Source of the DNA: Phytoactinopolyspora alkaliphila
GTDB taxonomy: Bacteria > Actinomycetota > Actinomycetes > Jiangellales > Jiangellaceae
NCBI RefSeq assembly: GCF_010550695.1
Contig: NZ_JAAGOB010000007.1
Span: forward strand, 124,001-188,000
DNA: 64,000 nucleotides
Reading direction: 5' to 3'
Shown here piece by piece: positions 1,775-28,052 of this stretch. The notes below the pieces were generated by a model. That model was not told the DNA's origin and ran no database searches. It saw only the letters and a list, made by a program, of their open reading frames with translations. Position numbers and translations under genes: made by a program. Within the stretch, counting starts at the first letter, position 1, and the number at the start of each line of letters is the position of its first letter.

Positions 1775-1776
1775 AC

Positions 1777-2583: not shown

Positions 2584-2614
2584 GCCTGACTGACCGAGTG
2601 GGGGTGGCCGGGTA

Positions 2615-4111: not shown

Positions 4112-4219
4112 AACATAAATGCGCCAAATTGCCCCCGACGTGAGCGGTTGCTCAAACAGGACAGGTCGATCTGTAATTCTCCGGCGACCAACCATGTTCG
4201 TGATGCGGAAGTGAGACCC

Positions 4220-11029: not shown

Positions 11030-11069
11030 CGCCCGTCTCCGCCGGCGTCACCGAGTTCGAGACCGCGAC

Positions 11070-11215
11070 CTGACGCCGTTCAGTCGTCCTGACACTCGTT
11101 TGTCGCGCCAACCGGCTCAACACCGGGCTTTGGCGCGACTGGAAGGTGTCAGGACGACTGAAGGGCGCCAGGACGTCGTCGTACGCGGCCAGTCAGGACG
11201 ACTGAACGGCGTCAG
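11070..11215. repeat. Nested inverted-repeat cluster
   Basis: CTGACGCCGTTCAGTCGTCC (start of the arm 11070-11093) is the exact reverse complement of 11192-11215 over 24 bp. A second 15-bp pair sits inside: 11081-11095 with 11146-11160. A third pair, GTCGCGCCA at 11102-11110 with TGGCGCGAC at 11131-11139, lies within that. The three pairs can form alternative hairpins. The right outer arm covers the stop codon of the flavin reductase gene (11212-11214). Confidence 0.85.
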
Positions 11216-11817
11216 GACGGGGGAGGGCCGAGCGGGTTGTCCCGGAGCGCCACAGCGACGCCGTGCAGGTTGGCCGCCATGGCTCGCCCGGTGGAGTGCG
11301 ACCACTCACGGCCGCGTTCCTCGTCGAGGTAGTCCGGCCCTGGGCCGGGCCCGAGATGCCAGTAGGTCCACGACTGGCCGGGGACGGTGTAGCCGATGTC
11401 GACGAGCGCGCCGCTGATCTCGCTGATGACGTGGTGCGCTCCGTCCTCGTTGCCGGTGACCACCACGCCCGCTACGCGGTTGAAGGCCACCGGCCGGCCG
11501 TCGTCGTCGGTTTCGCTGAGCATCGCGTCCATGCGCTCGAGCACGCGCTGAGTCACCGACGACGGCCGGCCCAGCCAGGTGGGCGACGCGACCACGAGGA
11601 TCTGCGCGTCGAGGAGTCTGGCATGGACCGACGGCCATTCGTCGTCGCCGCCCATGTCGGTCTCGACACCCGGCGCTAGCTGGAGATCCACCGCCCTGAT
11701 GGTCTCCACCGTGACACCGCGCCGGCTGAGCTCGCCGCTGACGACGGTGGCCAGTGCCTCGGTGTTCGACGTCTGCGGGGACGGCTTCAGCGTGCAGTTG
11801 ATCACGAGGGCGCGCAT
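11212..11817 (-). CDS. NADPH-dependent FMN reductase / flavodoxin-like oxidoreductase
   Basis: The product is about 201 residues from the ATG at 11817. An upstream in-frame start would add a non-conserved APARGKA stretch. The N-terminus MRALVINCTLKPSP is the phosphate-binding loop of FMN-reductase-like flavodoxin folds. VVASPTWLGRPSSVTQRVLER near residue 75 and GVVVTGNEDGAHHVISE near residue 118 are the flavin-binding loops. It probably reduces FMN or quinones in the cytoplasm. It stands alone, convergent to nothing and divergent from rmlA. Its stop lies in an inverted repeat, a possible terminator. Confidence 0.85.
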   Translation of the reverse strand: MRALVINCTLKPSPQTSNTEALATVVSGELSRRGVTVETIRAVDLQLAPGVETDMGGDDEWPSVHARLLDAQILVVASPTWLGRPSSVTQRVLERMDAMLSETDDDGRPVAFNRVAGVVVTGNEDGAHHVISEISGALVDIGYTVPGQSWTYWHLGPGPGPDYLDEERGREWSHSTGRAMAANLHGVAVALRDNPLGPPPS

Positions 11818-11936: not shown

Positions 11937-12797
11937 GTGAAAGGGATCATCCTCGCCGGAGGGACCGGGTCTCGGCTGTTCCCGCTGACCATCCCGGTCA
12001 GCAAGCAGCTCATGCCGGTGTATGACAAGCCGATGATCTACTACCCGCTCACCACCTTGATGCTGGCTGGTGTCACGGACGTTCTGGTGATCACCACTCC
12101 GGACGAGGCGGAGGCGTTCCACCGCCTGCTCGCCGACGGTTCCGACTTCGGGCTGTCCATCTCCTACGCCGTCCAGCCGCGACCCGAAGGCCTGGCACAG
12201 GCGTTCCTGATCGGTGCGCGGCACATCGGCCGGGATCCGGTGGCTCTCATCCTCGGCGACAACATCTTCGCCGGCCCCGGGCTCGGGTCCCAATTGCGCA
12301 AGCATCGCGACCCGCACGGGGGAGTGGTCTTCGCCTATCACGTGGCCGACCCGACGGCCTACGGCGTGGTGGAGTTCGACGCCGACGGGCGGGCCGTCTC
12401 TCTCGAGGAGAAGCCGGTCCGCCCGCGCAGTGCGTACGCGGTGCCGGGCCTGTACTTCTATGACAACGACGTCGTCGAGATCGCCCGCGGCCTGCGTCCG
12501 TCCGCCCGAGGCGAGCTGGAGATCACCGACGTGAACCGGCAGTACCTGGAAGCCGGCAGGCTGCAGGTGGAGGTCCTCCCACGAGGCACCGCCTGGCTGG
12601 ACACCGGCACCTTCGAGACACTGATGGCGGCAGGAGAGTACGTCCGGGTCATCGAGGCTCGCCACGGCGAGAAGATCGGCTGCCCGGAGGAGGCCGCCTG
12701 GCGGCTCGGGCTGATCGACGACGAGCAACTCCGGCGCCGGGGGAGTGCCCTGGCGAAGTCCGGATACGGCGCGTACCTGCTGAACCTGCCCGCGTGA
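11937..12797 (+). CDS. rmlA: Glucose-1-phosphate thymidylyltransferase
   Basis: RmlA makes dTDP-glucose from dTTP and glucose-1-phosphate, the first step of dTDP-L-rhamnose and other sugar precursors. The 286-residue length fits the family. [15 protein letters not shown] at the N-terminus is the nucleotidyltransferase loop, [17 protein letters not shown] follows, then [37 protein letters not shown] and [12 protein letters not shown]. The start is GTG with GGAGGGCGGAGCG upstream; the frame extends further 5' but without conserved residues. rmlB, C and D are not in the window. The last 50 bases lie inside the left 122-bp repeat of the island. Confidence 0.95.
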
Positions 12798-12869
12798 CGC
12801 GGCCCCCGGCCGCGGTAGGTCAGGCGTGCTCACTCGTCCGGTTGCTGAGCATCTGGGACAGGTCGTGGG
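12748..12869 (+). repeat. Left 122-bp direct repeat of the island
   Basis: This copy begins CCCTGGCGAAGTCCGG and ends CAGGTCGTGGG. It contains the last 50 bases of intact rmlA and, on the minus strand, the last few codons (MLSNRTSEHA) of the gene found intact at 24862-25344. It differs from the right copy only at 12779 and 12799. The sigma factor stop lies 13 bp beyond it. Confidence 0.95.
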
Positions 12870-12881: not shown

Positions 12882-13808
12882 TCAGTCACTGGGGGTGCCG
12901 CGTGCCTGCGCGGTCTGGCGAATGACTGCCCAGGGGTCTGCGACTGGACCTATGTGCGCGAGCTTGTCGGGGTTGATGATGGTGCGAATCATCTGGATCT
13001 CTCCGTTGAGTATGTCAAGCGTCCACGTGTTGATGACGTTGTTGTCCCAGTCGCGGAAGATGGCGCCAGGTTGGCCGTTGATCTCGTGTGGCTCCACTGC
13101 GCCGCCGATATGGACGAACGGCTTCAGGATGGTAGTGAGGACACGTGCGACGTTCTCGGCGCCGACGACGCCACTGCCCCATTGCGGGGCCTTACCGCCG
13201 CCATCCGCTGTCAGATGGACATCGGCTGCGAGAAGTTCCCTGAGGCCATCGACATCACCTTCGGCGAAGGCGCCGAAGAATCGGCGGGCAAGTTCCTCGC
13301 GCTCACGGCGGTCAGCATCGAATCGGGGCCGCCCTGCATCCATGTGGCGGCGCGCCCGGACTGCGAGTTGGCGGCACGCCGCCTCCGATCGGCCCACCGC
13401 CGAAGCGACCGCAGGGAAGCCGAACCCGAACACCTCCCGCAGCACGAACACCGCCCGCTCCAGCGGGCTGAGCCGCTCGAGCAGCAACAGAGCCGCCATC
13501 GACACCGAATCGGCCAGCTCCGCCGACCGTTCCGGATCCTCATACGGGTCGGTGAGCAGCGGCTCAGGAAACCACTGCCCGACGTAATTCTCCCGCCGGA
13601 CCCGGGCCGAGCGCAGCACATCGATCGAGACCCGGGTTACCACGGCCGAGAGAAACGCCTTGGTCGACGTCGGGAGCGTCGGGGAGGCGTCGTACCGCAG
13701 CCAAGTGTCCTGGACCGCGTCCTCCGCCTCGCTGACGCTACCGAGGATCCGGTAGGAGATCGAGAAGAGCAGCGGCCGTAACGTCTCGAACTCCTCTGCC
13801 CTGGTCAC
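12882..13808 (-). CDS. ECF41-family RNA polymerase sigma factor with SnoaL-like C-terminal extension
   Basis: The 308-residue protein has sigma2 (FETLRPLLFSISYRILGSVSEAEDAVQDTWLRY) and sigma4 (SPLERAVFVLREVFGFGF) regions. Its extended C-terminus carries the ECF41 hallmarks in slightly changed form: YVGQWFPEP between the sigma regions, then DGGGK and NPDKL in the SnoaL-like domain. In ECF41 factors this extension acts as a built-in regulator in place of an anti-sigma factor. The GTG start at 13808 overlaps the epimerase stop as GTGA and has AGGGAAGAG upstream. ECF41 genes are typically linked to carboxymuconolactone decarboxylase, oxidoreductase or epimerase partners, as here. Confidence 0.92.
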   Translation of the reverse strand: MTRAEEFETLRPLLFSISYRILGSVSEAEDAVQDTWLRYDASPTLPTSTKAFLSAVVTRVSIDVLRSARVRRENYVGQWFPEPLLTDPYEDPERSAELADSVSMAALLLLERLSPLERAVFVLREVFGFGFPAVASAVGRSEAACRQLAVRARRHMDAGRPRFDADRREREELARRFFGAFAEGDVDGLRELLAADVHLTADGGGKAPQWGSGVVGAENVARVLTTILKPFVHIGGAVEPHEINGQPGAIFRDWDNNVINTWTLDILNGEIQMIRTIINPDKLAHIGPVADPWAVIRQTAQARGTPSD

Positions 13809-14725
13809 GCCAGCTCTTCCCTGAAGCCCTGGCGCCACGAGGGATAGCTCGGCTTCCAGCCGAACTCCCGCTTAGTTTTGGCGTTGGAGAAGCCGCGGCC
13901 CTCGGTCATCACTCTCACCGCCACCTCTCCGCCCAGCGGCCGGGCCAGCCACACGGGGACCTTCATGGGCCGCCTCGCCCCGACGCACTCCGCGAGAAAT
14001 GGAAGCCACTCGTTGGCCGGAGCGGGTTCGTCATCGACGATGTTGAACACGCCACTCGCCTGGTGCTCGACGGCCAGAACCGTAGCGCTCGCCGCATCCT
14101 CCAGATGCACCCACGAACTGTAGCCGGCACCGTCCCCGACGAGAGGGAACTGCCGTCTGCGTACGGGTCCCACCAGGCTGTCGATGGCTCCCGGCCCATA
14201 AAGCCACCCGTATCGCAGGATCGCGCCGCCAACCTTGCTGACGACCTCTTCGACATAACGGATCGCCTCCATGCTTTGTTGCGCCGCCGTCCCGTCATGC
14301 AGGTCCAGAGGGTCCTCCTCTGTCTTCACCCAGCCGCCGGTGCGGATTCCGTTCCAACTGGCGTAGCTCTGCGCGACGAAGTGAGCCACGCCGGTCGCCT
14401 CGGCAGCGGCCAGCAAGTGATCCGTTCCTTCCGTGCGCAGCCGATTCGTGGTGGCAAACCAGCGGTCGAAATGCTTCATATCGGGCTTGCCGCCGATGGA
14501 CGTCATCTGATGCACGATGGTATCCGGCTGAGCTGCTGCCACCGCCTCACCGACTGACGCCGCGTCCAACCCGTCCATGACGACCGCTTCAGCACCCATC
14601 CGTCGAATGACGTCCAGATTGGCTGGTCCGGACGTCGTCGCCGTCACCTCATGTCCGCGTGCTATGAGTTGAGGCACCAACCGCCTCCCCAACACACCGG
14701 TCCCTCCCGCTACGAACACCCGCAC
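13805..14725 (-). CDS. NAD(P)-dependent epimerase/dehydratase (ECF41 partner)
   Basis: The 306-residue extended SDR begins MRVFVAGGTGVLGRRLVPQL, a GxxGxxG Rossmann motif. It has the active-site tail GAILRYGWLYGPG near residue 170 in place of a standard YxxxK region; QSYASWNG near residue 118 may supply the serine/tyrosine. The substrate is unknown. It is the first gene of a two-gene operon with the ECF41 sigma factor and starts with GTG preceded by GGGAG. A promoter with the ECF41 consensus lies upstream, so the pair is probably autoregulated. Confidence 0.88.
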   Translation of the reverse strand: MRVFVAGGTGVLGRRLVPQLIARGHEVTATTSGPANLDVIRRMGAEAVVMDGLDAASVGEAVAAAQPDTIVHQMTSIGGKPDMKHFDRWFATTNRLRTEGTDHLLAAAEATGVAHFVAQSYASWNGIRTGGWVKTEEDPLDLHDGTAAQQSMEAIRYVEEVVSKVGGAILRYGWLYGPGAIDSLVGPVRRRQFPLVGDGAGYSSWVHLEDAASATVLAVEHQASGVFNIVDDEPAPANEWLPFLAECVGARRPMKVPVWLARPLGGEVAVRVMTEGRGFSNAKTKREFGWKPSYPSWRQGFREELA

Positions 14726-15029: not shown

Positions 15030-16526
15030 TCAGAAGGTCCGATACGTCCAGTTGCCTGCGACCATCGTGCCCACCACTCCCGGATCGGCAAGCTGGGTGA
15101 GATCGGCGCGGATGGGATCGTGTTCCAGGACGACGAGATCGGCACGGGTACCTGGATGGAGCCCAGAGCGCCCGCGGCAGGCTGCCGTGAGTGTGTCGGC
15201 GATTCCCATCCGCTGTTCCGGATGCCATGGCTCGTCGTCGGCGCCTTGTGCCCGCAGCACGGCGGCCCTGATTCCCAGCCACGGATCGAGGGGAGTAACC
15301 GGAGCATCTGACCCCAGCTCCACCTGGATCCCGGCGGTGACCATGTCGGCGTAAGCGAAGGCACGATGGGTACGGCCGGCCCAGTGCCGATCGGCGACGT
15401 CACGATCCCCGAGGAGATGCGCAGGCTGAACGCCGACGGTCAGCCCGAGCTTTGCCAGCCGTGCCACACCGTGTGGTGGAAGCAGTTGGGCGTGCTCGAT
15501 CCGGCCGTCGCACGCCAACTCCTCGAACGCGTCAATCGCCATCTCGGCGGCGAGGTCGCCGATGGCATGCACTGCACTGTGGATCCCGTGCTCGGACGCT
15601 TTACCCATCAGCCTGCGCAATTCGTCGGGTGGTGTCTCAAGAAGACCGTGGGCGTCCGATGACGCACTGGCCCCTGGATACGCGTCATGACACAGGGCGG
15701 ACCGGGAGTTCAGCGACCCGTCGACGAACAGCTTGAGCGGCCCGGCTTCGACCATGCCGTCGGTGTCCGGTGCGATGTCGCCCGTCTTCATGCCACGCTC
15801 GATGGCCACATCGAGGTGCTCTTTGTAGACCGTGCACGATACGCGGACAGGCAACCGCTGCCGCCGTACCCTGCGCTGCCAGGACGGGAGGCAATCACCG
15901 AACTCGAAATCCATCAGCCCGGTGACCCCGTGAGCTGCCGCGTCGTCGAGTGCTTCGGCTATCCACGCGTCGACTTGGTCCACGCTGTACTCCTGCAGCG
16001 CAGCCATCGCCCGATAACAGTCGATCTCTCGAAGCACACCCGTCGGGTGGTCTGGCGCGCCGATACGTCGCAGGGCAGTCGGGCTCAGCCAAGCCGTGTG
16101 GAGGTCGTTGCTCTGCAGGGCGATGACGCGGTCGGCCGCAACCCCCCGGTAGAGATCCTTGTGCGGCAGATCCGGCCACAGGCCGTCGCGATAGCCATAG
16201 CCGATCAGGATCTCGTCGGGGTCCGACATGGCGGCCGCCGCTTCCGCGGCCAGGTCCGCGGCCTCCCGCGCTGACTTCGTCCCGTGGAGATCGAGGCGCC
16301 GGCGCGATATCGCCCAGCTCTCGACATGGACATGCGCATCCCAGAAGCCGGGCAGCACGGTGCGCCCGTCGAGATCGAGTCGCTGTGACGGTAGTGCTTG
16401 CGTGCCGCCGGCCTCGCCCAGCGAGTGAACCATCCCGTCCGCGAGAATGAGCGAGGTCAGGTCGGTGGCACCTGGCAATCGGGCGTTGTCGAGCAGAATG
16501 CGCTCAGGGCAGGGTGTTGCACTCAT
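15030..16526 (-). CDS. Amidohydrolase, Amidohydro_3 (YtcJ-like) family
   Basis: The 498-residue protein is the last gene of the island operon. It has the amidohydrolase layout: PGFWDAHVHVE with HxH near residue 65, LKLFVDGSLNSRSA near residue 265, AVHAIGD near residue 318 and the late metal Asp in ELGSDAPVTP near residue 412. This branch hydrolyses exocyclic amides or formyl groups from diverse compounds. The ATG at 16526 has AAGGAC 6 nt upstream and is preferred to 16556. It follows the ureohydrolase by 72 bp. A role in opening or deacylating the imported substrate is an inference. Confidence 0.86.
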   Translation of the reverse strand: MSATPCPERILLDNARLPGATDLTSLILADGMVHSLGEAGGTQALPSQRLDLDGRTVLPGFWDAHVHVESWAISRRRLDLHGTKSAREAADLAAEAAAAMSDPDEILIGYGYRDGLWPDLPHKDLYRGVAADRVIALQSNDLHTAWLSPTALRRIGAPDHPTGVLREIDCYRAMAALQEYSVDQVDAWIAEALDDAAAHGVTGLMDFEFGDCLPSWQRRVRRQRLPVRVSCTVYKEHLDVAIERGMKTGDIAPDTDGMVEAGPLKLFVDGSLNSRSALCHDAYPGASASSDAHGLLETPPDELRRLMGKASEHGIHSAVHAIGDLAAEMAIDAFEELACDGRIEHAQLLPPHGVARLAKLGLTVGVQPAHLLGDRDVADRHWAGRTHRAFAYADMVTAGIQVELGSDAPVTPLDPWLGIRAAVLRAQGADDEPWHPEQRMGIADTLTAACRGRSGLHPGTRADLVVLEHDPIRADLTQLADPGVVGTMVAGNWTYRTF

Positions 16527-16598
16527 ATAAGTCCTTCGAGTGGGCATGTGTGGCACATGCGGGAAGCCAGCCCGTCGCGGGCTTGGTCTGGAGGTGAG

Positions 16599-17483
16599 TC
16601 AGAGTGTCTTGCGTCGTTCCTGGCCGGACACCGCGAAGTCGAAGATCGCGGTCGCCGCGAGTCGGGAAGTCGTATCGTTGACGTCGATCATCGGATTGAC
16701 CTCCATCAGGGCAAGCGCGTCGCAGTGGGGCGCCAGGCCAGTGACAAGATCCAGGAAATGCCGCGAGGAGAAGCCTCCGGGCTCGTGCGCACCCGAGCCC
16801 GGAGCAAACGCGGGATCGACGACATCGATGTCGACGGTGAGCACCACGTGATCGGCCCCGCCGACACGGTCCACGATGCGCCGTACGGAATCGGTTACGC
16901 CGATGTCGATGCTCGTTTTGGCGGTGAGGACCTGTAACCCGACGTCCTCGGCGTAGCGTGCCGAGGAGGGAAAGTTGAAGTTGCGGAGCCCCACCTGGAT
17001 CGTGGCGCCGGGCGCAACTCGATCGAGCTCCAGGCAGCGGCGCATCCCGCTGGACTGACTGAACCCACCTTGCTTGGCGTTGGTGTCCGCGAGATCGAAA
17101 TGCGCATCGAGATAAATCAAGCCAACCGAGCCAGACACGGACCGATGAAAGCCCCGCACCGCGCCGAACAGCATCGAGTCGTCGCCGCCAACGAAGATCG
17201 GCACCCGTTCCTTGTCCATCGTGTCGGTGATAGCCGACGAGACCGCATCGAGCGAGGCCATCAGATCACTTGGTACGACCTCAGCGTCTCCACGGTCGGT
17301 GAGGAAGTTTCCGGACAGATCATGGTGGGACGCACTGTCCAGCCAGTAGACGGCCTCATCTTCGACCCGTCCTCGGATCCAGGCCAGGCTCCGGCGGATC
17401 GCTTCGGGCCCATATCGGGATCCAGGCCAGCCAAGGGTCGCTCCACCATCGAACGGGGCGCCCCACAACTCGAACTCACGCAC
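16599..17483 (-). CDS. Ureohydrolase (arginase/agmatinase superfamily) with an unusual metal site
   Basis: The 294-residue protein has three superfamily motifs: VGGDDSM, YLDAHFDLAD and DIDVVDPAFAPG. In active manganese enzymes the first is normally GGDHS; here residue 102 is Asp instead of the bridging-site His. The other five ligands (DAHxD and DxD) are kept. Members hydrolyse guanidino groups to urea (arginase, agmatinase, guanidinobutyrase) or formimidoyl groups. The start is GTG at 17483 with GAGGAGGA upstream. It lies 54 bp after the AsnC regulator. It could act on a different amidine or amide substrate, or use a changed metal. Confidence 0.85.
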   Translation of the reverse strand: MREFELWGAPFDGGATLGWPGSRYGPEAIRRSLAWIRGRVEDEAVYWLDSASHHDLSGNFLTDRGDAEVVPSDLMASLDAVSSAITDTMDKERVPIFVGGDDSMLFGAVRGFHRSVSGSVGLIYLDAHFDLADTNAKQGGFSQSSGMRRCLELDRVAPGATIQVGLRNFNFPSSARYAEDVGLQVLTAKTSIDIGVTDSVRRIVDRVGGADHVVLTVDIDVVDPAFAPGSGAHEPGGFSSRHFLDLVTGLAPHCDALALMEVNPMIDVNDTTSRLAATAIFDFAVSGQERRKTL

Positions 17484-17537
17484 GTCGGTTCCTCCTCGAC
17501 TTTGAGTTTCCTTGGATCTCAGGTGGTCAACGCCCAA

Positions 17538-18014
17538 CTAGTTGGCATCGGAGCCGGTGAACAGATCGAGCTGGCGGTTCGGCACGGCGGATGACATGAG
17601 CAGCAGCGTCTCTGTACGCCCGTACGACATCAGGTCGTCCAGCAGCACTTCCAGCTCGGGTACGCCTTCGCACACCACCCTCAGCAGATGCGAGGCATCG
17701 CCAGTGACCCGGTGGCATTCGAGTACGTGCCGGAGGGTGCGAGCATGTGATTCGAAGCTCTTGAACGTCGGCGGCTCGTTGAACACCTTGATGTACGCCT
17801 GGACGCTGTATCCCAGACGCTGGATGTTGATCTCGGCGCGGTAGCCCGTGAGGAGACCTTCGTCCTCAAGCTTCGCCACACGTTCCGTCACGGCCGCCGG
17901 GCTCAGTCCGACCCGCCGGCCTACCTCGGCATACGTCAGCCTCCCCTCGGCCTGAAGGATCGTCAAGATCTTCCGATTGACTGTGTCGAGTTCGACGGGT
18001 GGCTTCATTCTCAT
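17538..18014 (-). CDS. Lrp/AsnC-family transcriptional regulator
   Basis: The 158-residue protein has an N-terminal winged helix-turn-helix (LDTVNRKILTILQAEGRLTY, then EVGRRVGLSPAAVTERVAKLEDEG) and a C-terminal RAM domain (ECHRVTGDASHLLRVV). RAM domains bind amino acids and drive octamer formation. Its start overlaps the stop of the M24 gene as ATGA, so it is made as part of the catabolic operon and probably controls it in response to the substrate or a product. A similar AsnC regulator accompanies ectoine TRAP/catabolic operons. Confidence 0.92.
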   Translation of the reverse strand: MRMKPPVELDTVNRKILTILQAEGRLTYAEVGRRVGLSPAAVTERVAKLEDEGLLTGYRAEINIQRLGYSVQAYIKVFNEPPTFKSFESHARTLRHVLECHRVTGDASHLLRVVCEGVPELEVLLDDLMSYGRTETLLLMSSAVPNRQLDLFTGSDAN

Positions 18015-19240
18015 TCCCCCTCATACGTCGATCCGGCGGGCGAGGTGTGGGTCGAGATGACAGGCATCACGGGCGCCGGTGTCAGTAACTCGTATCCGGA
18101 TTCCGTCACCGCGACCATGTCTTCGATGCACAGCATGCCGACGTCCGGCGGTGCCACTATCGGTTCGACGCAGAAGACCATCCCGGACTCGAGGACGGTA
18201 CTGCGCTCGTTGAAGTACGGTGCCTCGATCAGATGCATGCCGATGCCGTGGCACAGGCTGAAGTCCCAAGCGGTCATTCCCCGCCCCGCCAGGACCGTGC
18301 TCATCGCATCCACGACGTCTTGGCCACGCACGCCGGGACGGATCGCGGCCAGGGCCGCGTCTCGGGCCTCGACGCACGCGTCGATGGCGCGGCGCGCTTC
18401 GGCGCTGGGGTCGCCGACGAAGCAGTTCCGCGAGACGTCGCTGCGGTAACCGCCGATGGTGGCTCCGAGATCGACCACCACGACCTCGCCGTCCCGCGGG
18501 CGCCGGTCGGTCGGCCAGGCGTTTTTGAACATCGACCGGAAGCCGGAGAGGGCGAAGCAACCGAAGTCCATCGCCTCGGCCCCTCGGCGGACACACCCGG
18601 CGTGGGCCGCGGCGGCAACGTCTAGCTCAGTTGCTGACGTCGAGACAGTGTGAAGGGACTCCATGAGCGCGGCCGAAACGGCCACACCCAGACGCCGGAG
18701 AAGCGCCAGCTCCTCGGCACTCTTGATCCGCCGGATCCGGCGGACCGCATCGCTGCAGTCGACCCATGTCACACCCGGCCGGAGCTCGGCCAGGCAATTG
18801 AACGAGGACACGGGTATGGCGCGCACATCGGCAAACCCGATTCGGCCGCGGGTCGGCAACGCTTCGGCGACCTGCTTGAGCAGCCCGTCGGAGGCCGGCC
18901 CGGCCTGCTCACCGGCGGCCGGCCGGAGATCGTGCACCCAGGTAGTTTGGGCGTTCGAGTGCATTGGCTCTCCGTGCGCGATCGCGGATGTGCACAGCAC
19001 CGGGGGTCCGGAGCCGTTCAGCACGGCGAAGCTCTGACCCCACCAGGTCGAGAAGCCGGTGAGATGCCGGGTCGGGGCGTCGTCGGCAGGTGAGCCGTAC
19101 AGGACGAGCGCATCGCATTCGTGAGCCGCGGCGACGGCTCGGTAGCTTTCCAGTCGCCGACCGTACTCGGACATGGAGAAAGTCAGCTCGAGCACGTCCA
19201 GCCGGGCCGGCCAGTTCCAAGGGATTCGCGCCTCAGGCAC
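18011..19240 (-). CDS. M24-family metallopeptidase-like hydrolase (Xaa-Pro peptidase / creatinase / ectoine hydrolase fold)
   Basis: The 409-residue protein has an N-terminal creatinase-like domain and a C-terminal pita-bread domain. The five usual metal ligands appear present: Asp in VVVDLGA, Asp in YRSDVSR, His in CHGIGMHL, Glu in CVEPIV and Glu in CIEDMV. The family includes Xaa-Pro peptidases but also creatinase and ectoine hydrolase, which open C-N bonds in small molecules. It starts with GTG inside the aminotransferase reading frame (8-bp overlap). Context of TRAP transporter and aminotransferase favours a small-molecule hydrolase over a peptidase. Confidence 0.88.
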   Translation of the reverse strand: MPEARIPWNWPARLDVLELTFSMSEYGRRLESYRAVAAAHECDALVLYGSPADDAPTRHLTGFSTWWGQSFAVLNGSGPPVLCTSAIAHGEPMHSNAQTTWVHDLRPAAGEQAGPASDGLLKQVAEALPTRGRIGFADVRAIPVSSFNCLAELRPGVTWVDCSDAVRRIRRIKSAEELALLRRLGVAVSAALMESLHTVSTSATELDVAAAAHAGCVRRGAEAMDFGCFALSGFRSMFKNAWPTDRRPRDGEVVVVDLGATIGGYRSDVSRNCFVGDPSAEARRAIDACVEARDAALAAIRPGVRGQDVVDAMSTVLAGRGMTAWDFSLCHGIGMHLIEAPYFNERSTVLESGMVFCVEPIVAPPDVGMLCIEDMVAVTESGYELLTPAPVMPVISTHTSPAGSTYEGE

Positions 19241-20570
19241 GGGCGGCCACCTCCGCCTCGCACGCTCGGGCCAAGCCCGCGCACATGATGTCTATCTCGG
19301 CAGCCGACACCGTCATCGGCGGGCGGAAACGAATACTGCGTGGTCCACCGGCCAGGGCGAAGATCCGCTGCTCGTCGCGCAGTCGTGCCATGACACGGTC
19401 ACGGGTACTGGTATCGGGCAGGTCGATTGCGGCGATGACGCCGCGCCCGCGAACGTTGATCACGAAATTGTCGCTGCTCTCCGACAGGGCGTCCAGACCA
19501 TCCAGGAGGTGATTTCCGACCTCAGCGACATGCTGGAGCAGGTTCCGAGCTCGGATCACTTCCATGACCTTCGTCGCCCGGACCATGTCGGTCAGGTTGA
19601 CCCCCCACGTCGAGCCGATCCGCGCCGTGGTGGCGAAGACGTTGCTCTCTACCTCGTGCACACGGCGCCCCGCCATGACTCCACATACCTGGAGCTTCTT
19701 GCCGAAGGCGATGATGTCGGGCTCGAGCCCGTGTGCCTGATAGGCCCAGGGTTCGCCGGTGGCACCTGCGCCGCTCTGTACCTCGTCGAGGACGAACAGC
19801 GCGTCGTTCTCCCGGCACATCTCCTGGACCCGCGACAGGAACTCACCGCGAAGATGGTTGTCGCCGCCTTCGCTCTGGATCGTCTCGGCGATGAAGCAGG
19901 CGATCTCCCCGCCTTGTTCGTCGAAGGCTTGCGCCGCGGCGTCGAGCGCGGTTCTCTCAGCCTTCTCGATCTCGTCCAGGTATGTCTTCACCGGGTACCG
20001 GACCACGGGTGCGGGGACTCGCGGCCAATCGAAGGCTGGGAAGTGGCGTGTGTAGATCGGGCGGGTGTTCGTCAGGGACAGGGTGTATCCCGATCGCCCG
20101 TGGAAACTGCCGGTGAGGTGCAGGACGCGCCACGGGGGGCGGTCATCGGACCGGGCCGGGTCTGAGCGCTGCGCTTTCCAGTCGAAGGCCACCTTGAGAG
20201 CATTCTCCACCGCCAAGGCACCTCCTTCGACGAACATCACCTTGTCGAGGGCGGGGTCGGCGAATGTCCGGTCGAACTCGGTGAAGAACTCGGCAAAATC
20301 CTCCGTGACGACGTCGGAACACGACGGCTTGTGCAGGGCGGCTCGCAGCAACCGCCCCCGGAACCGATGATCCTCGGTCAGGTCCGGTGGGTTCATGCCC
20401 AACGGCTGAGAGCCGTGGAAACCGGCGAAGTCGAGGTAGGGTCGCCCGTCCTCCGCCGACGCCAGCCATGTGCCGTGGCTGCGCTCGAAGTCGAGAACGA
20501 ACGTGCCGGGCTGATACGGCAAGCGGGAGAGCACACGCGGAGGCACGGGCGCGTCTGGCGGGGGAGTCAC
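19233..20570 (-). CDS. Class III aminotransferase, L-lysine 6-aminotransferase-like
   Basis: The 445-residue PLP enzyme has several signatures shared with lysine 6-aminotransferases: GSFHGRSGYTLSLTNT near residue 163, FIAETIQSEGGDNHLRGEF near residue 235, VLDEVQSGAGATG with the PLP Asp, and FGKKLQVCG with the PLP lysine. Lat converts lysine to aminoadipate semialdehyde; related enzymes use ornithine, diaminobutyrate or GABA. The GTG at 20570 has AAAGGAAA upstream. It lies 45 bp after the TRAP large permease and overlaps the M24 gene. The link to a dedicated importer suggests the amino donor is the imported compound or its hydrolysis product. Confidence 0.88.
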   Translation of the reverse strand: MTPPPDAPVPPRVLSRLPYQPGTFVLDFERSHGTWLASAEDGRPYLDFAGFHGSQPLGMNPPDLTEDHRFRGRLLRAALHKPSCSDVVTEDFAEFFTEFDRTFADPALDKVMFVEGGALAVENALKVAFDWKAQRSDPARSDDRPPWRVLHLTGSFHGRSGYTLSLTNTRPIYTRHFPAFDWPRVPAPVVRYPVKTYLDEIEKAERTALDAAAQAFDEQGGEIACFIAETIQSEGGDNHLRGEFLSRVQEMCRENDALFVLDEVQSGAGATGEPWAYQAHGLEPDIIAFGKKLQVCGVMAGRRVHEVESNVFATTARIGSTWGVNLTDMVRATKVMEVIRARNLLQHVAEVGNHLLDGLDALSESSDNFVINVRGRGVIAAIDLPDTSTRDRVMARLRDEQRIFALAGGPRSIRFRPPMTVSAAEIDIMCAGLARACEAEVAARA

Positions 20571-20615
20571 GTACGTGTTTCCTTTCACGGGTGGCCAAAG
20601 TGTGGGCACGATCGA

Positions 20616-21905
20616 TCACATCCCGTAGCCGAGCAGCCTCGGCAGCAGCAGACTGATGTCCGACCACAAGGTCAAGACCAGCAACGCGGCGATCAACACC
20701 GCGATGAACGGCAGGATCTCCCGGATGATCTCGGCCAGCGGTGTCCGAGTCTGGTTGCTGAGTATGAACAAGAGCATCCCGAACGGTGGTGTGGCCAGGC
20801 CGACCATGATGTTGAAGGTGATGACCACGCCCAGGTGAACCGGGTCCACACCGGCGGTCAGCAGGGCGGGAAGAACGATCGGAATCATCACCAGCAGGAG
20901 CACCATGGTGTCGAGAACCATGCCCAGGAGCAGGAAGACCACGTTGACGATGAGGAGCAGCACGATCGCGTTGGTGCTGACCTCGAGCAACCCCATCGCG
21001 ATGCGGGCACCGACACCCTCGCTGGCTACCGCGTAGCTCACGATGAATCCGCCGGCCAGGACTACACAGGTACTCGCCGTCTGGCGGGAAGCCGTCCGCA
21101 ACACCTGGTATATCCGGCGGGGCGAGCGAAGCCCGTACGCCGTTCCCAGGATCAGCGCGTACAGCGCCGCGACACCGGCGGCTTCGGTGGGTGTGAAGGC
21201 GCCGCTGTAGATGCCGCCGAGCAGGATGACCACCGTCAACAGGGCAGGCGCGGCGCGGATGAAGGACCGGCCCACATGTCCAAAGCCCTGCCACCCCGGT
21301 TTCGGGAAGTCCTGCCGGCGGGCCAGGAAGCCGATGAGGCCCATGAGGAACAGCGCGATGACGACTCCGGGTAGGATCCCCGCAGCGAACAGCATGCCGA
21401 CGCTGGTGCCGGAAAGATACGCGTAGATGACCATGGTGATGCTCGGCGGGATCACGCCGCCGAGGGTCGCGGACGCCGCGCTCGCCGCGCACGCGAAGCC
21501 GGGCCTGTAGCCGGCCTCGACCTGAGCTTTCGTCACCATCTTTCCGGTTCCACTGGCGTCGGCCATTGCGCTGCCGCTCATGCCGCTGAACACGCCGCTC
21601 GTGACGACGTCGACCTGGGCCAGACCTCCTCGCATGCCGCCCACCGTGGAATGCGCGAGCGTGAACAGGCGCTCGGCGATCCTCGACACGTTCATCAGCT
21701 CGGCGCCGAAGATGAACAGCGGGATCGCCAGAAGGATGAACTTCGAATAGAAACCGCCCATGACCACCTGCGCGACATTGCCCAGGTCACCGCCTCCGAC
21801 CAGCATGTACACCATGCCGCCGGACAGCATCGTGAAACCGATAGGCGTGCGCAGGAGGAAGCCGGCCACGAGGACTATGAGCATCACCGTGAATTCCGTG
21901 CTCAT
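20616..21905 (-). CDS. dctM: TRAP transporter large permease subunit (DctM type)
   Basis: The 429-residue protein is almost wholly hydrophobic, with about 12 membrane segments. Family motifs include AIPLFIFGAELMNVSRIAER near residue 55, GVFSGMSGSAMADASGTG near residue 100, GGVIPPSITMVIY near residue 150 and LLVMIPIVLPAL near residue 345. It is the sodium-coupled transport subunit that works with the small DctQ subunit and a soluble binding protein. Its ATG overlaps the DctQ stop as ATGA with GAGGGGGT upstream. Confidence 0.95.
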   Translation of the reverse strand: MSTEFTVMLIVLVAGFLLRTPIGFTMLSGGMVYMLVGGGDLGNVAQVVMGGFYSKFILLAIPLFIFGAELMNVSRIAERLFTLAHSTVGGMRGGLAQVDVVTSGVFSGMSGSAMADASGTGKMVTKAQVEAGYRPGFACAASAASATLGGVIPPSITMVIYAYLSGTSVGMLFAAGILPGVVIALFLMGLIGFLARRQDFPKPGWQGFGHVGRSFIRAAPALLTVVILLGGIYSGAFTPTEAAGVAALYALILGTAYGLRSPRRIYQVLRTASRQTASTCVVLAGGFIVSYAVASEGVGARIAMGLLEVSTNAIVLLLIVNVVFLLLGMVLDTMVLLLVMIPIVLPALLTAGVDPVHLGVVITFNIMVGLATPPFGMLLFILSNQTRTPLAEIIREILPFIAVLIAALLVLTLWSDISLLLPRLLGYGM

Positions 21906-22426
21906 GGCACGACCCCCTCGCTGTCCGGGCGCCATGCTCGGAGATCGGCAAAGAGGCGGACCAACCTGTGTAAGACCGTTGCCACGAGGAAGACGAGGAA
22001 AGGCGAGAAGGCGATGCTGAACGGCACGCCGACGCCCGGGACTCGTTCGGCTCCCATGAACTGCAGGTAGCGCACGGTCGGCCAGATGGCCAGGCTGAAC
22101 GGCACCACGATCAGAAGATCGGACCCGATCCGGCTGGCGAACTGGGCAGCAGGCGGCAAGCGGCGGTAGACCAGGTCGAAGGCGATGTGGTCATCGTCTC
22201 GGTGCAGCGGACCGCTGCCGATCGTGATGACAGCGATGAAGGCGAGTGTGCTGATGCTGACAGTCCAGACGAGCGGCTGATCGAAGACATACCGGGACGC
22301 CACTCCGGCGATCACCGTCACGAACATAGCGATGAAGAGCACGGCGGTAGCAGTCTCTTCGAGTCCGCGGATGAGCCTGACGCCGTGCGAGACCCGCTGC
22401 TTGTCGCGTACCGGCGCCTCCGTCAT
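21902..22426 (-). CDS. dctQ: TRAP transporter small permease subunit (DctQ type)
   Basis: The 174-residue protein has four membrane helices (near residues 25-45, 60-78, 100-120 and 138-158), with R-Y-V-F and HRDDDHIAFDLV in the first loop region, as in DctQ. It binds DctM to form the membrane part of the TRAP importer. The ATG at 22426 overlaps the stop of the upstream binding-protein gene (ATGA); the longer frame to 22465 lacks support. Confidence 0.9.
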   Translation of the reverse strand: MTEAPVRDKQRVSHGVRLIRGLEETATAVLFIAMFVTVIAGVASRYVFDQPLVWTVSISTLAFIAVITIGSGPLHRDDDHIAFDLVYRRLPPAAQFASRIGSDLLIVVPFSLAIWPTVRYLQFMGAERVPGVGVPFSIAFSPFLVFLVATVLHRLVRLFADLRAWRPDSEGVVP

Positions 22427-23448
22427 CGAAGCGACTCGATCTGGTCGTACATATCGGGCAACCACCTCTCGGTGATGGATTCGTCTTGGAGGTACGTTCC
22501 TAGGACGTGCTCGCGGAATGCGTCGACGTCCGGTTCGTACACCCGTAGTCCGGCCTCCTCGAACTGCCGTGCCAGGTCGGACTCCAAGGCCAAGGTCTCC
22601 GCGGTCGCCTCGTCGCGCGCGGTGCGCCAGGCGTCGACGATCGCGTCCTGGTGGCCGGGGTCCAGACCTTGCCAGACGTCCTCGTTGATGGTCGGCCAGA
22701 CGGAGTCCGCTACATGGCTGCTGAGGACGACCTGCTCGGTCACCTCGTGCAGCTTGCTGGCGTAGGTGAGGGGGAGGGGTGTCTCCTGTGCATCGATCGT
22801 GCCCGTCTGCAGAGCGAGATAGACCTCTCCGAATGCCACCGGTGTCGGTTCCGCGCCTAGGGCGCGCCCCATATAGAGCCAGTTGTCCCGGTCGGGGACG
22901 CGCAGCTTGACTCCGTCCAGGTCCGCGGGGGTTCGGACCTCGCGGCTTCCGTCTCGAAGACTGAGTTGCCTGGTGCCGATGTAGAGCGTGGTCAGCGGGC
23001 GAATCCCCATCTCTTCGCGAACCAGCTCAAAAAGTTGCTCACCGGGTGGTCCATCCATGACTCGGTAGAGATGCTCGGCGTCGGAGATCACGTATGGCGT
23101 CGAGACGATCTCCGCCGCAGGCACGCGATCGGCTACCCATTGGGGGCCGGCGAACGTCATATCGAGATCGCCCCGGAGCAGTGCGGACTGCTCAGCGTTC
23201 TGGTCGTACAGACTGCCACTGCTGAAGACCTGGATCTCGACGGCGCCGGAGGTGTTCTCCTCGACCAGCTCCGCGAACCGATTGATCGCCCCGGTGGCGA
23301 TATCGTCCGGAGCGAGAATGGTCGAGAAGCGCAGGCTAACCTCGCCGCCGCCCTCGGTGTCGTCGTTCGACCCACCACAGCCGGCCAGCACGGCGGAGAG
23401 TGTGAGTGCGACGCCAGCGGCCGTATTCGAGAGGAATCGCTTCGTCAT
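22423..23448 (-). CDS. dctP: TRAP transporter substrate-binding lipoprotein, copy 1 (DctP type)
   Basis: The 341-residue protein has a lipobox ending at Cys24 (LSAVLAGC). The mature part has DctP features: RFSTILAPDD at the first strand, AFGEVYLALQTGTIDAQETPL in the hinge region and the carboxylate-binding Arg in LRVPDRDNW. Two adjacent ATGs occur; the second (23448) has the better spacing to GAGG. It captures an organic acid or zwitterion for DctQM. It is clearly a paralogue of the next gene upstream, sharing whole motif blocks throughout its length. Confidence 0.92.
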   Translation of the reverse strand: MTKRFLSNTAAGVALTLSAVLAGCGGSNDDTEGGGEVSLRFSTILAPDDIATGAINRFAELVEENTSGAVEIQVFSSGSLYDQNAEQSALLRGDLDMTFAGPQWVADRVPAAEIVSTPYVISDAEHLYRVMDGPPGEQLFELVREEMGIRPLTTLYIGTRQLSLRDGSREVRTPADLDGVKLRVPDRDNWLYMGRALGAEPTPVAFGEVYLALQTGTIDAQETPLPLTYASKLHEVTEQVVLSSHVADSVWPTINEDVWQGLDPGHQDAIVDAWRTARDEATAETLALESDLARQFEEAGLRVYEPDVDAFREHVLGTYLQDESITERWLPDMYDQIESLR

Positions 23449-23504
23449 CATGCACCTCGAGTTCAGATCGTGGCCGAGAGGTCGGTGATCGTCTCGGCGG
23501 AGAG

Positions 23505-24536
23505 TCAGTAGGTGACAGCTTGCAGGGTCTCGAGGAGCCCTTCCGGCCATTGCCCGACGACGGCTTCGTCGTTCAGGTAGATCCCCTGAACATGTTCACG
23601 GAACGCGTCGACGTCGGGCTCGTAGACATCGAGGCCTTCGTCGCGGAAGTAGTCCTGCAACTCGGCTTCGCGCTGGACGGTCTTCCCCGTCGCCTCGTCG
23701 CGCGCGACGAGCCACGCGTCATGGATTGCGCGCTGCTCGTCCTCGCTCAGACCCTGCCAGGTGTCCTCATTGATCGTGGGCCAATAGTCCGTGACCACGT
23801 GGCCGGTCAGCGAGACACTGGACGTTACCTCGTAGAACTTGCTCGAGAACGTCAACGGGAGTGCGGTCTCCTGTGCGTCGACCGCGCCGGTCTGCAGCGC
23901 CAGGTACAGCTCGCCGAACGCCACCGGCGTGGGATCTGCCCCGAGTGACCTCGCCATGTATATCCACGAGTCTTGATCGGGTATCCGAAGTTTGACGCCG
24001 TTCAAGTCTTCGGGGGTCATCACACGATGGCCGATGTCGCGCAGATTGAGCTGCCGCGTTCCAACGTAGACGGTGGTCAGCGGCCGGATGTTCAACGTTT
24101 CGACGGTGTCGGAGAAGATGCGTTCCCCGACCTCGCTCGACATGACGGCGTACAGGTGTTCCGGATTCTCGATCATGTAAGGAACCGTGACGATACTGGC
24201 GGCGGGCACGCGGTCGGAGATCTCCTGCGGCCCGATGAACGTCATGTCGAGATCGCCACGTTGAATCGCCTGCTGGGCTTGGTTCTGATCGAATAAGCTC
24301 CCGCTGTCGAAGACCTCGACGGTCACGGCACCGGCTGTGTTCTCCTCGACCTCGGCGGCGAAGCGGCGCACCGCCTCTGTCGCATAATCGTCCGGCGCGA
24401 GAATCGTGGAGAATCGCAGAGTACGAGATCCCGAATCCGGATCGTCGCCGGCGCTGTTGGAGCAAGCTGTCAAGAGGGCGGATCCGAGAATGAATGCCAC
24501 CGCCGTTGATCTATAAAACACCACGCGCTTTCTCAT
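23505..24536 (-). CDS. dctP: TRAP transporter substrate-binding lipoprotein, copy 2 (DctP type)
   Basis: First gene of the island operon, 343 residues, lipobox ending at Cys25 (SALLTAC). RFSTILAPDDYATEA, VKLRIPDQDSW and AFGELYLALQTGAVDAQETAL align with the next gene block for block. Two binding proteins for one DctQM pair is unusual and suggests two related ligands or affinities. ATG 24536 has GGGAG 7 nt upstream; the longer GTG start at 24554 is less likely. Confidence 0.92.
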   Translation of the reverse strand: MRKRVVFYRSTAVAFILGSALLTACSNSAGDDPDSGSRTLRFSTILAPDDYATEAVRRFAAEVEENTAGAVTVEVFDSGSLFDQNQAQQAIQRGDLDMTFIGPQEISDRVPAASIVTVPYMIENPEHLYAVMSSEVGERIFSDTVETLNIRPLTTVYVGTRQLNLRDIGHRVMTPEDLNGVKLRIPDQDSWIYMARSLGADPTPVAFGELYLALQTGAVDAQETALPLTFSSKFYEVTSSVSLTGHVVTDYWPTINEDTWQGLSEDEQRAIHDAWLVARDEATGKTVQREAELQDYFRDEGLDVYEPDVDAFREHVQGIYLNDEAVVGQWPEGLLETLQAVTY

Positions 24537-24554
24537 CTTCAACTCCCAAGTCAC

Positions 24555-24789: not shown

Positions 24790-24911
24790 CCCTGGCGAAG
24801 TCCGGATACGGCGCGTACCTCCTGAACCTGCCCGCGTGACACGGCCCCCGGCCGCGGTAGGTCAGGCGTGCTCACTCGTCCGGTTGCTGAGCATCTGGGA
24901 CAGGTCGTGGG
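24790..24911 (+). repeat. Right 122-bp direct repeat of the island
   Basis: It matches 12748-12869 at 120 of 122 positions. It holds an orphan piece of the rmlA 3' end (codons for [16 protein letters not shown], without its first bases) facing the intact 3' end of the gene at 24862-25344. The mismatches are at 24821 and 24841. Confidence 0.95.
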
Positions 24912-25344
24912 CGAGCGCGCCGAGATCCTCGGCCTTGTAGACGCCGGCGAGCTCATCCAGCAGCCGGGCGATGACCGTGGCCTGGCCACGGGTCAGCACC
25001 GCCGGCGCCGCGTCGTCGGCCTGCTCCATCCGGAGCCGAAGCTGTGCGGCGAAGTCGTCGCGGTTCACCGGATTGCCCGCCCGGTCCCGCATGGCGGCGG
25101 TGGGCCGCGGTGGAACGGTGGCCGGGGCTTTGCTGAACTCCGCGTGCTCGGGACAGTAGTCGCTCTCGCGGACGGGGTCATAGGTCCAGTCCGCCGCGTG
25201 GTTCCGGGCCCATGACAGAGCGTCGGCGTCGCTGCGCCATCGCTCGGCCGGAGGCGGCTCCACCTGAACCGGGCATCCGGCGACGTCGCAGCTGATCACG
25301 ATACGTCGTGGTGTGGCCCCTCTGCCGGACAGATGGATGCTCAC
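24862..25344 (-). CDS. Hypothetical protein convergent with rmlA before island insertion
   Basis: I do not recognise the family. The 160-residue product starts with GTG (MSIHLSGRG) preceded by GAGAGG. It has two halves. Residues about 15-70 contain SCDVAGCPVQV and DYCPEHA, a possible zinc-binding C-C-C-H set. Residues about 95-155 form a predicted helical part (LRLRMEQADDAAPAVLTRGQ and ARLLDELAGVYKAEDL). Its last 17 codons and stop lie in the right repeat; the left repeat keeps a copy of those codons next to rmlA. It therefore marks the ancestral neighbour of rmlA. Confidence 0.65.
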   Translation of the reverse strand: MSIHLSGRGATPRRIVISCDVAGCPVQVEPPPAERWRSDADALSWARNHAADWTYDPVRESDYCPEHAEFSKAPATVPPRPTAAMRDRAGNPVNRDDFAAQLRLRMEQADDAAPAVLTRGQATVIARLLDELAGVYKAEDLGALAHDLSQMLSNRTSEHA

Positions 25345-26420: not shown

Positions 26421-28052
26421 TCAGTCCATGTGCGGGTAGCGGTATTGCGTCGGGGGCTCGAAGGTCTCCTTGATGGCGCGCGTGGAGGTCCAGCGCAGCA
26501 GGTTCTGCGTCGAACCGGCCTTGTCGTTGGTCCCAGACGCACGCGAACCGCCGAACGGCTGCTGCCCGACGACGGCCCCGGTCGGCTTGTCGTTGACGTA
26601 GAAGTTGCCCGCCACTGAACGCAACGCGTGGGCGGCATGCGTGATGGCGCCCCGGTCCCGGGCGATCACAGCCCCGGTGAGCCCGTACGGGGAGGCGTCC
26701 TTGATCTGCGCTATCACGCCGTCCAGGTCGGCGTCGTCGTAGACGAACACGGCCATGATCGGGCCGAAGTACTCGGTGCGGAACACGTCGTTGCGCGGGT
26801 CGTCGCACACGAGGACGGTCGGCTGGATGAAGTACCCGGTCGAGTCGTCGTAGGTGCCGCCCGTGAGGACCGTGATGGAGGGGTCGGCGTGCGCGCGGTC
26901 GATCGCGGCCTTGAGCCGGGCGAACGCCCGGGCGTCGATGACGGCGCCGAGGAAGTTGCCGAGATCGGTGACGTCGCCCATCGGCAGCGATCGGACCTCC
27001 TCCACAAGGGTGCCGGACATCCGCTCCCACACACTGCGCGCGACGTACGCACGCGAGGCGGCCGAGCACTTCTGTCCCTGGTACTCGAAGGCGCCGCGGA
27101 TCAGCGCCGTGCGGGCGACCGCCGGGTCCGCCGACGGGTCCACCAGGACGAAGTTCTTCCCGCCGGTCTCACCCACCAGGCGGGGGTACGTGTCGTAGCT
27201 GCCGATGTTCTCGCCCACGGTGCGCCACAGGTGCTGGAAGGTGGCCGTGGATCCGGTGAAGTGGATCCCGGCCAGTCCGGGGTCGGCCAGGACGACGTCA
27301 GAGACAGCGAGGCCGTCGCCGGGCAACATGTTGATCACTCCGGGCGGCAACCCGGCTTCCTCAAGCAGGCGCATCGTCCAGTGCGCGGCGAACTGCTGCG
27401 TCGGCGCCGGCTTCCACACCACGCAGTTGCCCATCAGCGCCGGCGCGGCGGGCAGGTTCCCGGCGATCGCGGTGAAGTTGAACGGGCTGACGGCGTAGAC
27501 GAACCCGTCCAGCGGGCGGTGGTCCAGCCGGTTCCAGATCCCGGGAGCGTTCGCTGCCGGCTGCTCGGCGAGGATCTGCCGGGCGAAGTGCACGTTGAAG
27601 CGCCAGAAGTCGATCAGCTCGCAGGCCGAGTCGATCTCTGCCTGTATCACCGTCTTCGACTGCCCGAGCATGGTCGCGGCGTTGAGCGTGTCGCGCCACG
27701 GGCCGGAGAGCAGCTCGGCTGCCTTGAGGAAGACCGCGGCCCGGTCGTCGAAGCTCATCGCCTGCCACGGCCCGGCCGCATCGCGGGCCGCCGCGATGGC
27801 CGACTTCGCGTCGGCGTGCGTCGCGTTGCGCAGCACGCCGAGTACGGCGCGGTGATTGTGCGGCTGGACGACCGGCATCTCGGCTCCTCCGCCGGGCCGC
27901 TGCTCGCCACCGATCGTGGCCGGCAGGTCGATCGGCCCGGCGGCGGCCAGGGCGCTGAGCCTGGCGGTGAGCCGGGACCGCTCGGGGCTCCCGGGGCCGT
28001 ACTGCAGCACGGGTTCGTTGACAGGTGCGGGGACCTGGGTGACGGCGTCCAT
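26421..28052 (-). CDS. pruA: L-glutamate gamma-semialdehyde dehydrogenase (1-pyrroline-5-carboxylate dehydrogenase)
   Basis: The 543-residue enzyme oxidises glutamate semialdehyde, from proline or ornithine breakdown, to glutamate with NAD. It is long for an ALDH, as expected for this branch. Marks are SPFNFTAIAGNLP near residue 190, VGETGGKNFVLV with the base Glu, QGQKCSAASRAYV with the nucleophile Cys, FGPIMAVFVYDD and the C-terminal QPFGGSRASGTNDKAGS. Proline dehydrogenase is not in the window. The divergent PucR regulator probably controls it. In this genome it could also consume semialdehydes from ornithine or related diamines. Confidence 0.95.
   Translation of the reverse strand: MDAVTQVPAPVNEPVLQYGPGSPERSRLTARLSALAAAGPIDLPATIGGEQRPGGGAEMPVVQPHNHRAVLGVLRNATHADAKSAIAAARDAAGPWQAMSFDDRAAVFLKAAELLSGPWRDTLNAATMLGQSKTVIQAEIDSACELIDFWRFNVHFARQILAEQPAANAPGIWNRLDHRPLDGFVYAVSPFNFTAIAGNLPAAPALMGNCVVWKPAPTQQFAAHWTMRLLEEAGLPPGVINMLPGDGLAVSDVVLADPGLAGIHFTGSTATFQHLWRTVGENIGSYDTYPRLVGETGGKNFVLVDPSADPAVARTALIRGAFEYQGQKCSAASRAYVARSVWERMSGTLVEEVRSLPMGDVTDLGNFLGAVIDARAFARLKAAIDRAHADPSITVLTGGTYDDSTGYFIQPTVLVCDDPRNDVFRTEYFGPIMAVFVYDDADLDGVIAQIKDASPYGLTGAVIARDRGAITHAAHALRSVAGNFYVNDKPTGAVVGQQPFGGSRASGTNDKAGSTQNLLRWTSTRAIKETFEPPTQYRYPHMD

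What the first reader, a model, noticed from the sequence alone, without database searches (positions are those of the whole stretch)
15030..24536. Candidate undescribed catabolic operon: TRAP importer, aminotransferase, M24 hydrolase, AsnC, ureohydrolase, amidohydrolase
Nine same-strand genes, most overlapping or within 75 bp, join a two-binding-protein TRAP importer to a Lat-like aminotransferase, an M24 creatinase/ectoine-hydrolase-fold enzyme, an AsnC regulator, a ureohydrolase and an amidohydrolase. The TRAP-AsnC-M24-class III aminotransferase core resembles ectoine use operons. However, the deacetylase, dehydrogenase and EutBC genes are missing, and a guanidino/amidine hydrolase and an amidohydrolase are present. 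A cyclic or guanidino-bearing amino acid (ectoine-like, capreomycidine- or enduracididine-like, or creatine-like) is a testable substrate class.
Basis: partly seen in the sequence, partly recalled or inferred. Interest (0 to 1): 0.78.

Follow-up and report, generated by a model that had tools for sequence, protein, structure and literature searches.

The report
Acquired operon with unusual M24 enzyme
An actinobacterium carries a nine-gene set, bracketed by a repeated sequence that suggests it was inserted, that probably imports and dismantles an unidentified nitrogen-rich amino-acid derivative using a rare peptidase-like enzyme that has lost the peptidase's helper residues; the substrate is not yet known.

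Summary
In detail: nine tightly packed minus-strand genes (24554-15030) encode two TRAP binding proteins, DctQ, DctM, a Lat-like aminotransferase, an M24 protein, AsnC, a ureohydrolase and a YtcJ-type amidohydrolase. A 122-bp direct repeat (120/122 identical) at 12748-12869 and 24790-24911 brackets them plus a sigma/SDR pair, so the block looks inserted; no empty site was found. The ectoine reading fails: the M24 lies outside the DoeA clade, DoeB and a dehydrogenase are missing, and the binding proteins score best with SiaP-type receptors. The M24 belongs to a rare clade (two relatives, 40-43% identical, other neighbours) that keeps all five metal ligands but has lost the second-shell histidines and arginine of aminopeptidase P. 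The ureohydrolase (H101->D) is below every agmatinase, arginase and HutG cut-off. The aminotransferase is a divergent second Lat with altered pocket residues. The exact gene set was not found elsewhere, but a similar layout (AsnC, PLP enzyme, histidine-less M24, amino-acid importer, amidohydrolase) recurs in rhizobia and roseobacters around diaminopropionate ammonia-lyase. Best reading: inducible catabolism of an amidino-, guanidino- or formimidoyl-substituted diamino acid; substrate unknown.

The parts
12748..12869 (+). left copy of a 122-bp direct repeat: 3' end of an rmlA-like gene, intergenic DNA, and the tail of a gene whose body lies at the right-hand copy
   Evidence: self-BLAST, 120/122 identical to 24790-24911
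24790..24911 (+). right copy of the 122-bp direct repeat: rmlA tail remnant plus the 3' end of gene 24862-25344
12882..13838 (-). ECF sigma factor with SnoaL-like domain, inside the bracketed block, not part of the operon
   Evidence: Pfam; the sigma/SDR pair recurs at other places in congeners
13805..14725 (-). SDR-family (NAD-dependent epimerase/dehydratase) gene paired with the sigma factor
   Evidence: Pfam and NCBIfam; homologs
15030..16556 (-). YtcJ-type amidohydrolase (Amidohydro_3); metal-ligand motifs appear intact (read from the sequence)
   Evidence: Pfam 205.7 bits; nearest solved proteins are uncharacterised hydrolases 3icj and 3igh
16599..17537 (-). ureohydrolase-fold enzyme; GGDDS instead of GGDHS, Gln at the H141 position, other metal ligands kept
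   Evidence: Pfam Arginase 197 bits; below all NCBIfam cut-offs; motif table
17538..18014 (-). Lrp/AsnC-family regulator
18011..19240 (-). M24 pita-bread protein of a rare clade: D257, D268, H331, E359, E373 kept; H243, H350, H361 and R404 equivalents replaced by N, F, I, C
19233..20609 (-). Lat-like class III aminotransferase, divergent second copy
   Evidence: LAT_fam 540.7 bits against cut-off 520.8, lowest of 37 matches in the class; pocket changes
20616..21935 (-). DctM, TRAP large permease
21902..22465 (-). DctQ, TRAP small permease
22423..23550 (-). DctP2, TRAP binding protein (likely start 23448)
23505..24554 (-). DctP1, TRAP binding protein (likely start 24536)
   Evidence: nearest solved 4pf6, then SiaP

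Best explanation
A catabolic operon, probably laterally acquired. The TRAP system, with two related receptors, takes up one or two related carboxylates. Three hydrolases (M24, ureohydrolase, YtcJ-type amidohydrolase) remove N-linked groups or open an amide or amidine ring, leaving a free omega-amine on an alpha-amino acid backbone. The Lat-like enzyme transaminates that amine to a semialdehyde, which is oxidised by dehydrogenases encoded elsewhere (the Lat-linked aldehyde dehydrogenase on contig C1, or the P5C dehydrogenase at 26421-28052). AsnC senses an intermediate. Shown by sequence: gene order, families, kept and lost active-site residues, the bracketing repeat. Inferred: direction of the pathway, order of steps, and substrate class, an amidino-, guanidino- or formimidoyl-substituted diamino acid of the lysine/ornithine type. 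The exact substrate is unknown; homoarginine-type compounds are one guess among several.
For: Single-strand, overlapping genes. Lat keeps the PLP lysine, R170, E243, T330 and R422 equivalents (residue roles from PMC9780415). Ureohydrolase fold with five of six metal ligands and PAH, 3-guanidinopropionase and HutG among nearest kin. Ureohydrolases 48-50% identical on Klebsiella and Pantoea plasmids sit beside an amino-acid-type ABC importer, consistent with uptake followed by hydrolysis. M24 genes of comparable type are linked to AsnC, a PLP enzyme, an amino-acid importer and an amidohydrolase or Zn-hydrolase in rhizobia and roseobacters, and to TRAP genes in Photobacterium. Canonical Lat with an ALDH most like P6C dehydrogenase on C1; P5CDH near the window operon. 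Bracketing repeat and lower GC.
Against: No co-conserved copy of the gene set, so functional linkage rests on this one locus plus layout analogies. The binding proteins resemble sialic-acid type receptors, which is not what a diamino-acid importer would predict. The Lat pocket changes (V63->H, N328->G) may mean a different substrate. No aldehyde dehydrogenase lies inside the operon. The ureohydrolase changes could mean an amidine rather than a guanidine substrate.
Confidence: 0.42

Rival explanations
1. Amidine route: the ureohydrolase works like formimidoylglutamase, releasing formamide from an N-formimidoyl compound or opened cyclic amidine, and the amidohydrolase removes a formyl or related group.
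For: Best NCBIfam score is HutG (131.8 bits). Histidines at the H101 and H141 positions are replaced, as they are in B. subtilis HutG (GGDNS, TNG) in the alignment; window motifs.
Against: Below the HutG cut-off (229). Nearest solved chains are PAH and guanidinopropionase. The deformylase idea for YtcJ-type enzymes rests on recalled literature only.
Confidence: 0.25
2. Peptide scavenging: the M24 protein is an Xaa-Pro type peptidase and the operon uses small peptides.
For: Pfam M24 hit and all metal ligands kept; prolidases are the best sequence hits.
Against: The histidines corresponding to H243, H350 and H361 and the arginine corresponding to R404 of E. coli aminopeptidase P are replaced in all three clade members; those residues are described as catalytic, second-shell or proton-relay residues (PMC5774706). 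TRAP import, ureohydrolase and Lat are unexplained.
Confidence: 0.08
3. Ectoine or hydroxyectoine utilisation operon variant.
For: TRAP, AsnC, M24 and a class III aminotransferase together, as in ectoine operons (PMC5924519).
Against: M24 is outside the DoeA clade and differs at its key residues; no DoeB or dehydrogenase; the TRAP receptor chain 3fxb (ectoine receptor UehA, identified from memory) scores 88 bits against 245 for 4pf6; predicted ectoine consumers were confined to Proteobacteria in the 539-genome survey cited in PMC5924519.
Confidence: 0.03
4. Sugar-acid or glycated amino-acid catabolism: SiaP-like receptors import an amino sugar acid or a sugar-lysine/arginine adduct, which the hydrolases and Lat dismantle.
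For: DctPs score best against 4pf6 and SiaP-type receptors; the closest DctP hits on plasmids lie in loci annotated for sugar-type substrates.
Against: No aldolase, kinase or sugar dehydrogenase in the operon.
Confidence: 0.12
5. A patchwork of unrelated genes caught in one insertion, without a single pathway.
For: No conserved gene set found; block bracketed by a repeat.
Against: Several ATGA-type overlaps and short gaps; transporter, regulator and enzymes fit a catabolic operon; similar layouts elsewhere.
Confidence: 0.1

Closest known systems
Ectoine utilisation operon (uehABC/eut-doe; DoeA/EutD, DoeB, AsnC, Atf, Ssd)
   Same: Importer, AsnC, an M24-fold enzyme and a class III aminotransferase in one operon
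   Different: M24 keeps metal ligands that DoeA has lost and lacks the H243-type histidine that DoeA keeps; no deacetylase or dehydrogenase; ureohydrolase and amidohydrolase added
Uncharacterised AsnC-diaminopropionate ammonia-lyase-M24-ABC-Zn-hydrolase/amidohydrolase operons of rhizobia and roseobacters
   Same: AsnC, a PLP enzyme, an M24 protein with metal ligands but without second-shell histidines, an importer and a further hydrolase, sometimes with one part missing
   Different: Different M24 clade, a lyase instead of Lat, ABC instead of TRAP, no ureohydrolase
L-lysine 6-aminotransferase (Lat, TIGR03251)
   Same: Passes the family cut-off; keeps PLP lysine, R170, E243, T330 and R422 equivalents
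   Different: 49% identical to the genome's canonical Lat; lowest-scoring of 37; V63->H and N328->G equivalents
Ureohydrolase superfamily (PAH, 3-guanidinopropionase, HutG)
   Same: Fold family and five of six metal ligands
   Different: H101->D and H141->Q; groups at about 50% identity with standalone and ABC-linked proteins

Membership tests
Ectoine utilisation operon | M24 member of the DoeA/EutD clade | tested here: not met
   Window M24 groups with L008 and L009 (99/99), DoeA rows group apart (100/100); NCBIfam DoeA models far below cut-off
Ectoine utilisation operon | DoeB/EutE deacetylase and semialdehyde dehydrogenase in the operon | tested here: not met
   The nine genes contain neither
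Ectoine utilisation operon | Ectoine-type TRAP receptor (TeaA/UehA) | tested here: inconclusive
   3fxb 88 bits, 4pf6 245 and SiaP 187 bits; sequence ranking only, no ligand data
M24 Xaa-Pro peptidases | Five metal ligands D, D, H, E, E | tested here: met
   D257, D268, H331, E359, E373
M24 Xaa-Pro peptidases | Second-shell His243, His350, His361 and Arg404 (E. coli aminopeptidase P numbering) | tested here: not met
   N, F/Y, I/V/T, C in the three clade members
Creatinase | Groups with proven creatinases | tested here: inconclusive
   No proven creatinase was in the tree, only a creatinase-like pair; the fold match ties with prolidase and DoeA
L-lysine 6-aminotransferase | Curated family cut-off | tested here: met
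   540.7 against 520.8 bits
L-lysine 6-aminotransferase | Substrate-pocket residues V63 and N328 as in the Mtb enzyme | tested here: not met
   H65 and G332 in the window protein; other Lats have F or V and N or S; the column mapping to Mtb numbering is inferred
Agmatinase, arginase, HutG equivalogs | Curated family cut-off of any of the three | tested here: not met
   107, 81 and 132 bits against 174, 228 and 229; GGDDS in place of GGDHS, though HutG itself also lacks this histidine
Agmatinase, arginase, HutG equivalogs | Release of urea or formamide from the family's substrate | not testable with these tools
   Needs an enzyme assay

The most novel reading that the evidence does not exclude
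The M24 clade, with the diaminopropionate-linked clade, represents a broad unrecognised class of dinuclear-metal pita-bread enzymes without the peptidase histidines that act as small-molecule hydrolases or isomerases in AsnC-controlled amino-acid catabolic operons; this operon uses it on an amino acid whose degradation has not been described.
Probability: 0.3. Interest if true: 0.6.

Novelty: new variant of a known kind. Interest (0 to 1): 0.42.

Why it matters
If true it adds an unknown degradation route for a nitrogen-rich amino-acid derivative, and it points to M24 proteins, routinely annotated as Xaa-Pro peptidases, that probably are not peptidases. The recurring AsnC, PLP enzyme, M24 and importer layout gives a testable set of operons.

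Tried and rejected
M24 as query in viral contigs and plasmids at strict cut-offs: no match. Whole-genome searches for the M24 in the order, phylum, class and a sample of Alphaproteobacteria: only itself or L008, at cut-offs of 1e-60, 1e-65, 1e-35 and 1e-35; in the large searches only the top few candidates per genome were scored, so distant copies could be missed. The genome-contig scan used exact peptide patterns from one sequence, so it finds close relatives only. An A1-profile search of G753's family found only G753 itself. Empty insertion site: joined flanks matched no relative across the junction. Fold comparison of the M24 model did not separate prolidase-type, creatinase and DoeA (Z 34.5, 34.0, 33.0), and parts of the model near the active site had pLDDT below 50. 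The ureohydrolase model was too poor to use (mean pLDDT 63). Promoter and terminator scans: nothing above chance. Literature for homoarginine plus lysine 6-aminotransferase: one plant paper.

Full report
Observation. Likely starts give several ATGA-type overlaps and gaps of 75 bp or less. About 305 bp separate the set from its neighbours on each side. The two binding proteins are 58% identical tandem copies.

Setting. The genome is a 5.5-Mb draft; the window lies on contig C31. A 122-bp direct repeat, 120/122 identical, lies at 12748-12869 and 24790-24911. The left copy runs from the end of an rmlA-like gene into the tail of a convergent gene; the right copy holds the rmlA tail and the intact end of gene 24862-25344. 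This suggests that about 12 kb, carrying an ECF sigma/SDR pair and the operon, was inserted between two convergent genes. GC is 0.60-0.68 inside the block and mostly 0.68-0.72 outside. No integrase or transposase was seen inside. None of the four congeners gave an M24 match at E 1e-60; most DNA matches to the region in congeners are to flanking genes, the sigma/SDR pair and the Lat gene. No relative showed the joined flanks, so the insertion is inferred from the repeat alone, and an assembly error cannot be excluded.

M24. Two relatives at 40-43% identity were found, in Acuticoccus mangrovi (next to an amidase, a 2OG-Fe oxygenase and an ABC transporter) and a Hyphomicrobiales MAG (next to a class V aminotransferase). 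The three form a clade (99/99) apart from DoeA, PepE/prolidase-like rows, a creatinase-like pair (assigned by motif, not by proven function) and a diaminopropionate-linked clade. All five metal ligands are kept. The residues matching His243, His350, His361 and Arg404 of E. coli aminopeptidase P are N, F/Y, I/V/T and C. PMC5774706 describes those histidines and the arginine as second-shell, catalytic or proton-relay residues. A peptidase role is therefore doubtful, but no activity has been measured.

Ureohydrolase. It scores best with HutG, agmatinase and arginase models but below all cut-offs. GGDHS is GGDDS and the H141 position is Q; the other ligands are kept. Relatives at about 50% identity are standalone in two other actinobacterial lineages or beside an XRE regulator and an amino-acid-type ABC importer on Klebsiella and Pantoea plasmids.

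Aminotransferase. It passes the Lat cut-off narrowly and is the lowest of 37 matches in 148 class genomes. About thirty positions invariant in 30 other Lats are changed. Catalytic residues are kept; positions mapped to V63 and N328 of the Mtb enzyme are H and G (roles from PMC9780415). The genome's canonical Lat on C1 stands beside an aldehyde dehydrogenase whose best model is piperidine-6-carboxylate dehydrogenase, though below its cut-off.

Transporter and amidohydrolase. The receptors score best with 4pf6 and then SiaP-type proteins; the chain 3fxb, which I recall as the ectoine receptor UehA, is far lower. The amidohydrolase is nearest to two uncharacterised solved hydrolases.

Comparison. 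The exact set was not found elsewhere, within the limits given under Tried and rejected. The general layout recurs: AsnC, diaminopropionate ammonia-lyase, M24, an amino-acid ABC importer and a Zn-hydrolase or amidohydrolase in Agrobacterium, Rhizobium, Sinorhizobium, Ensifer and roseobacters, sometimes without one part; the M24 rows tested from these operons also keep the metal ligands and lack the histidines. TRAP genes stand with such an M24 in Photobacterium.

Verdict. A real, probably acquired catabolic operon with an unusual M24 enzyme. Ectoine and simple peptide use are unlikely. An amidine- or guanidino-substituted diamino acid is the best-supported class, but the receptor resemblance to sialic-acid binders is unexplained and the substrate is open.

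Noticed in passing
window 11061-11222: Palindromic intergenic repeat (about 110 bp, GTCAGGACGACTGAA arms) with many copies in the own genome.
   Followed up: partly
window 161-5677: A second catabolic-looking cluster: a lipoprotein-like ORF (161-1774, family not tested), an Amidohydro_2 protein, an amidase and an aldehyde dehydrogenase.
   Followed up: no
L091, L094, L095, L106, L107, L108: Operons of AsnC, diaminopropionate ammonia-lyase, M24, amino-acid importer and Zn-hydrolase or amidohydrolase in rhizobia and roseobacters; the three M24 members tested keep the metal ligands but lack the peptidase histidines.
   Followed up: partly
L105 301-1485: DoeA-clade M24 next to a cyclodeaminase on a Priestia megaterium plasmid, a possible ectoine-type pair outside Proteobacteria.
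   Followed up: no
L011 8427-12909: XRE regulator, amino-acid-type ABC importer and a ureohydrolase about 48% identical to the window's, between IS1 elements on a Klebsiella plasmid.
   Followed up: partly
window 12882-14725: ECF sigma with SnoaL domain paired with an SDR gene; the same pair occurs at other places in congeners and once more in the own genome.
   Followed up: partly
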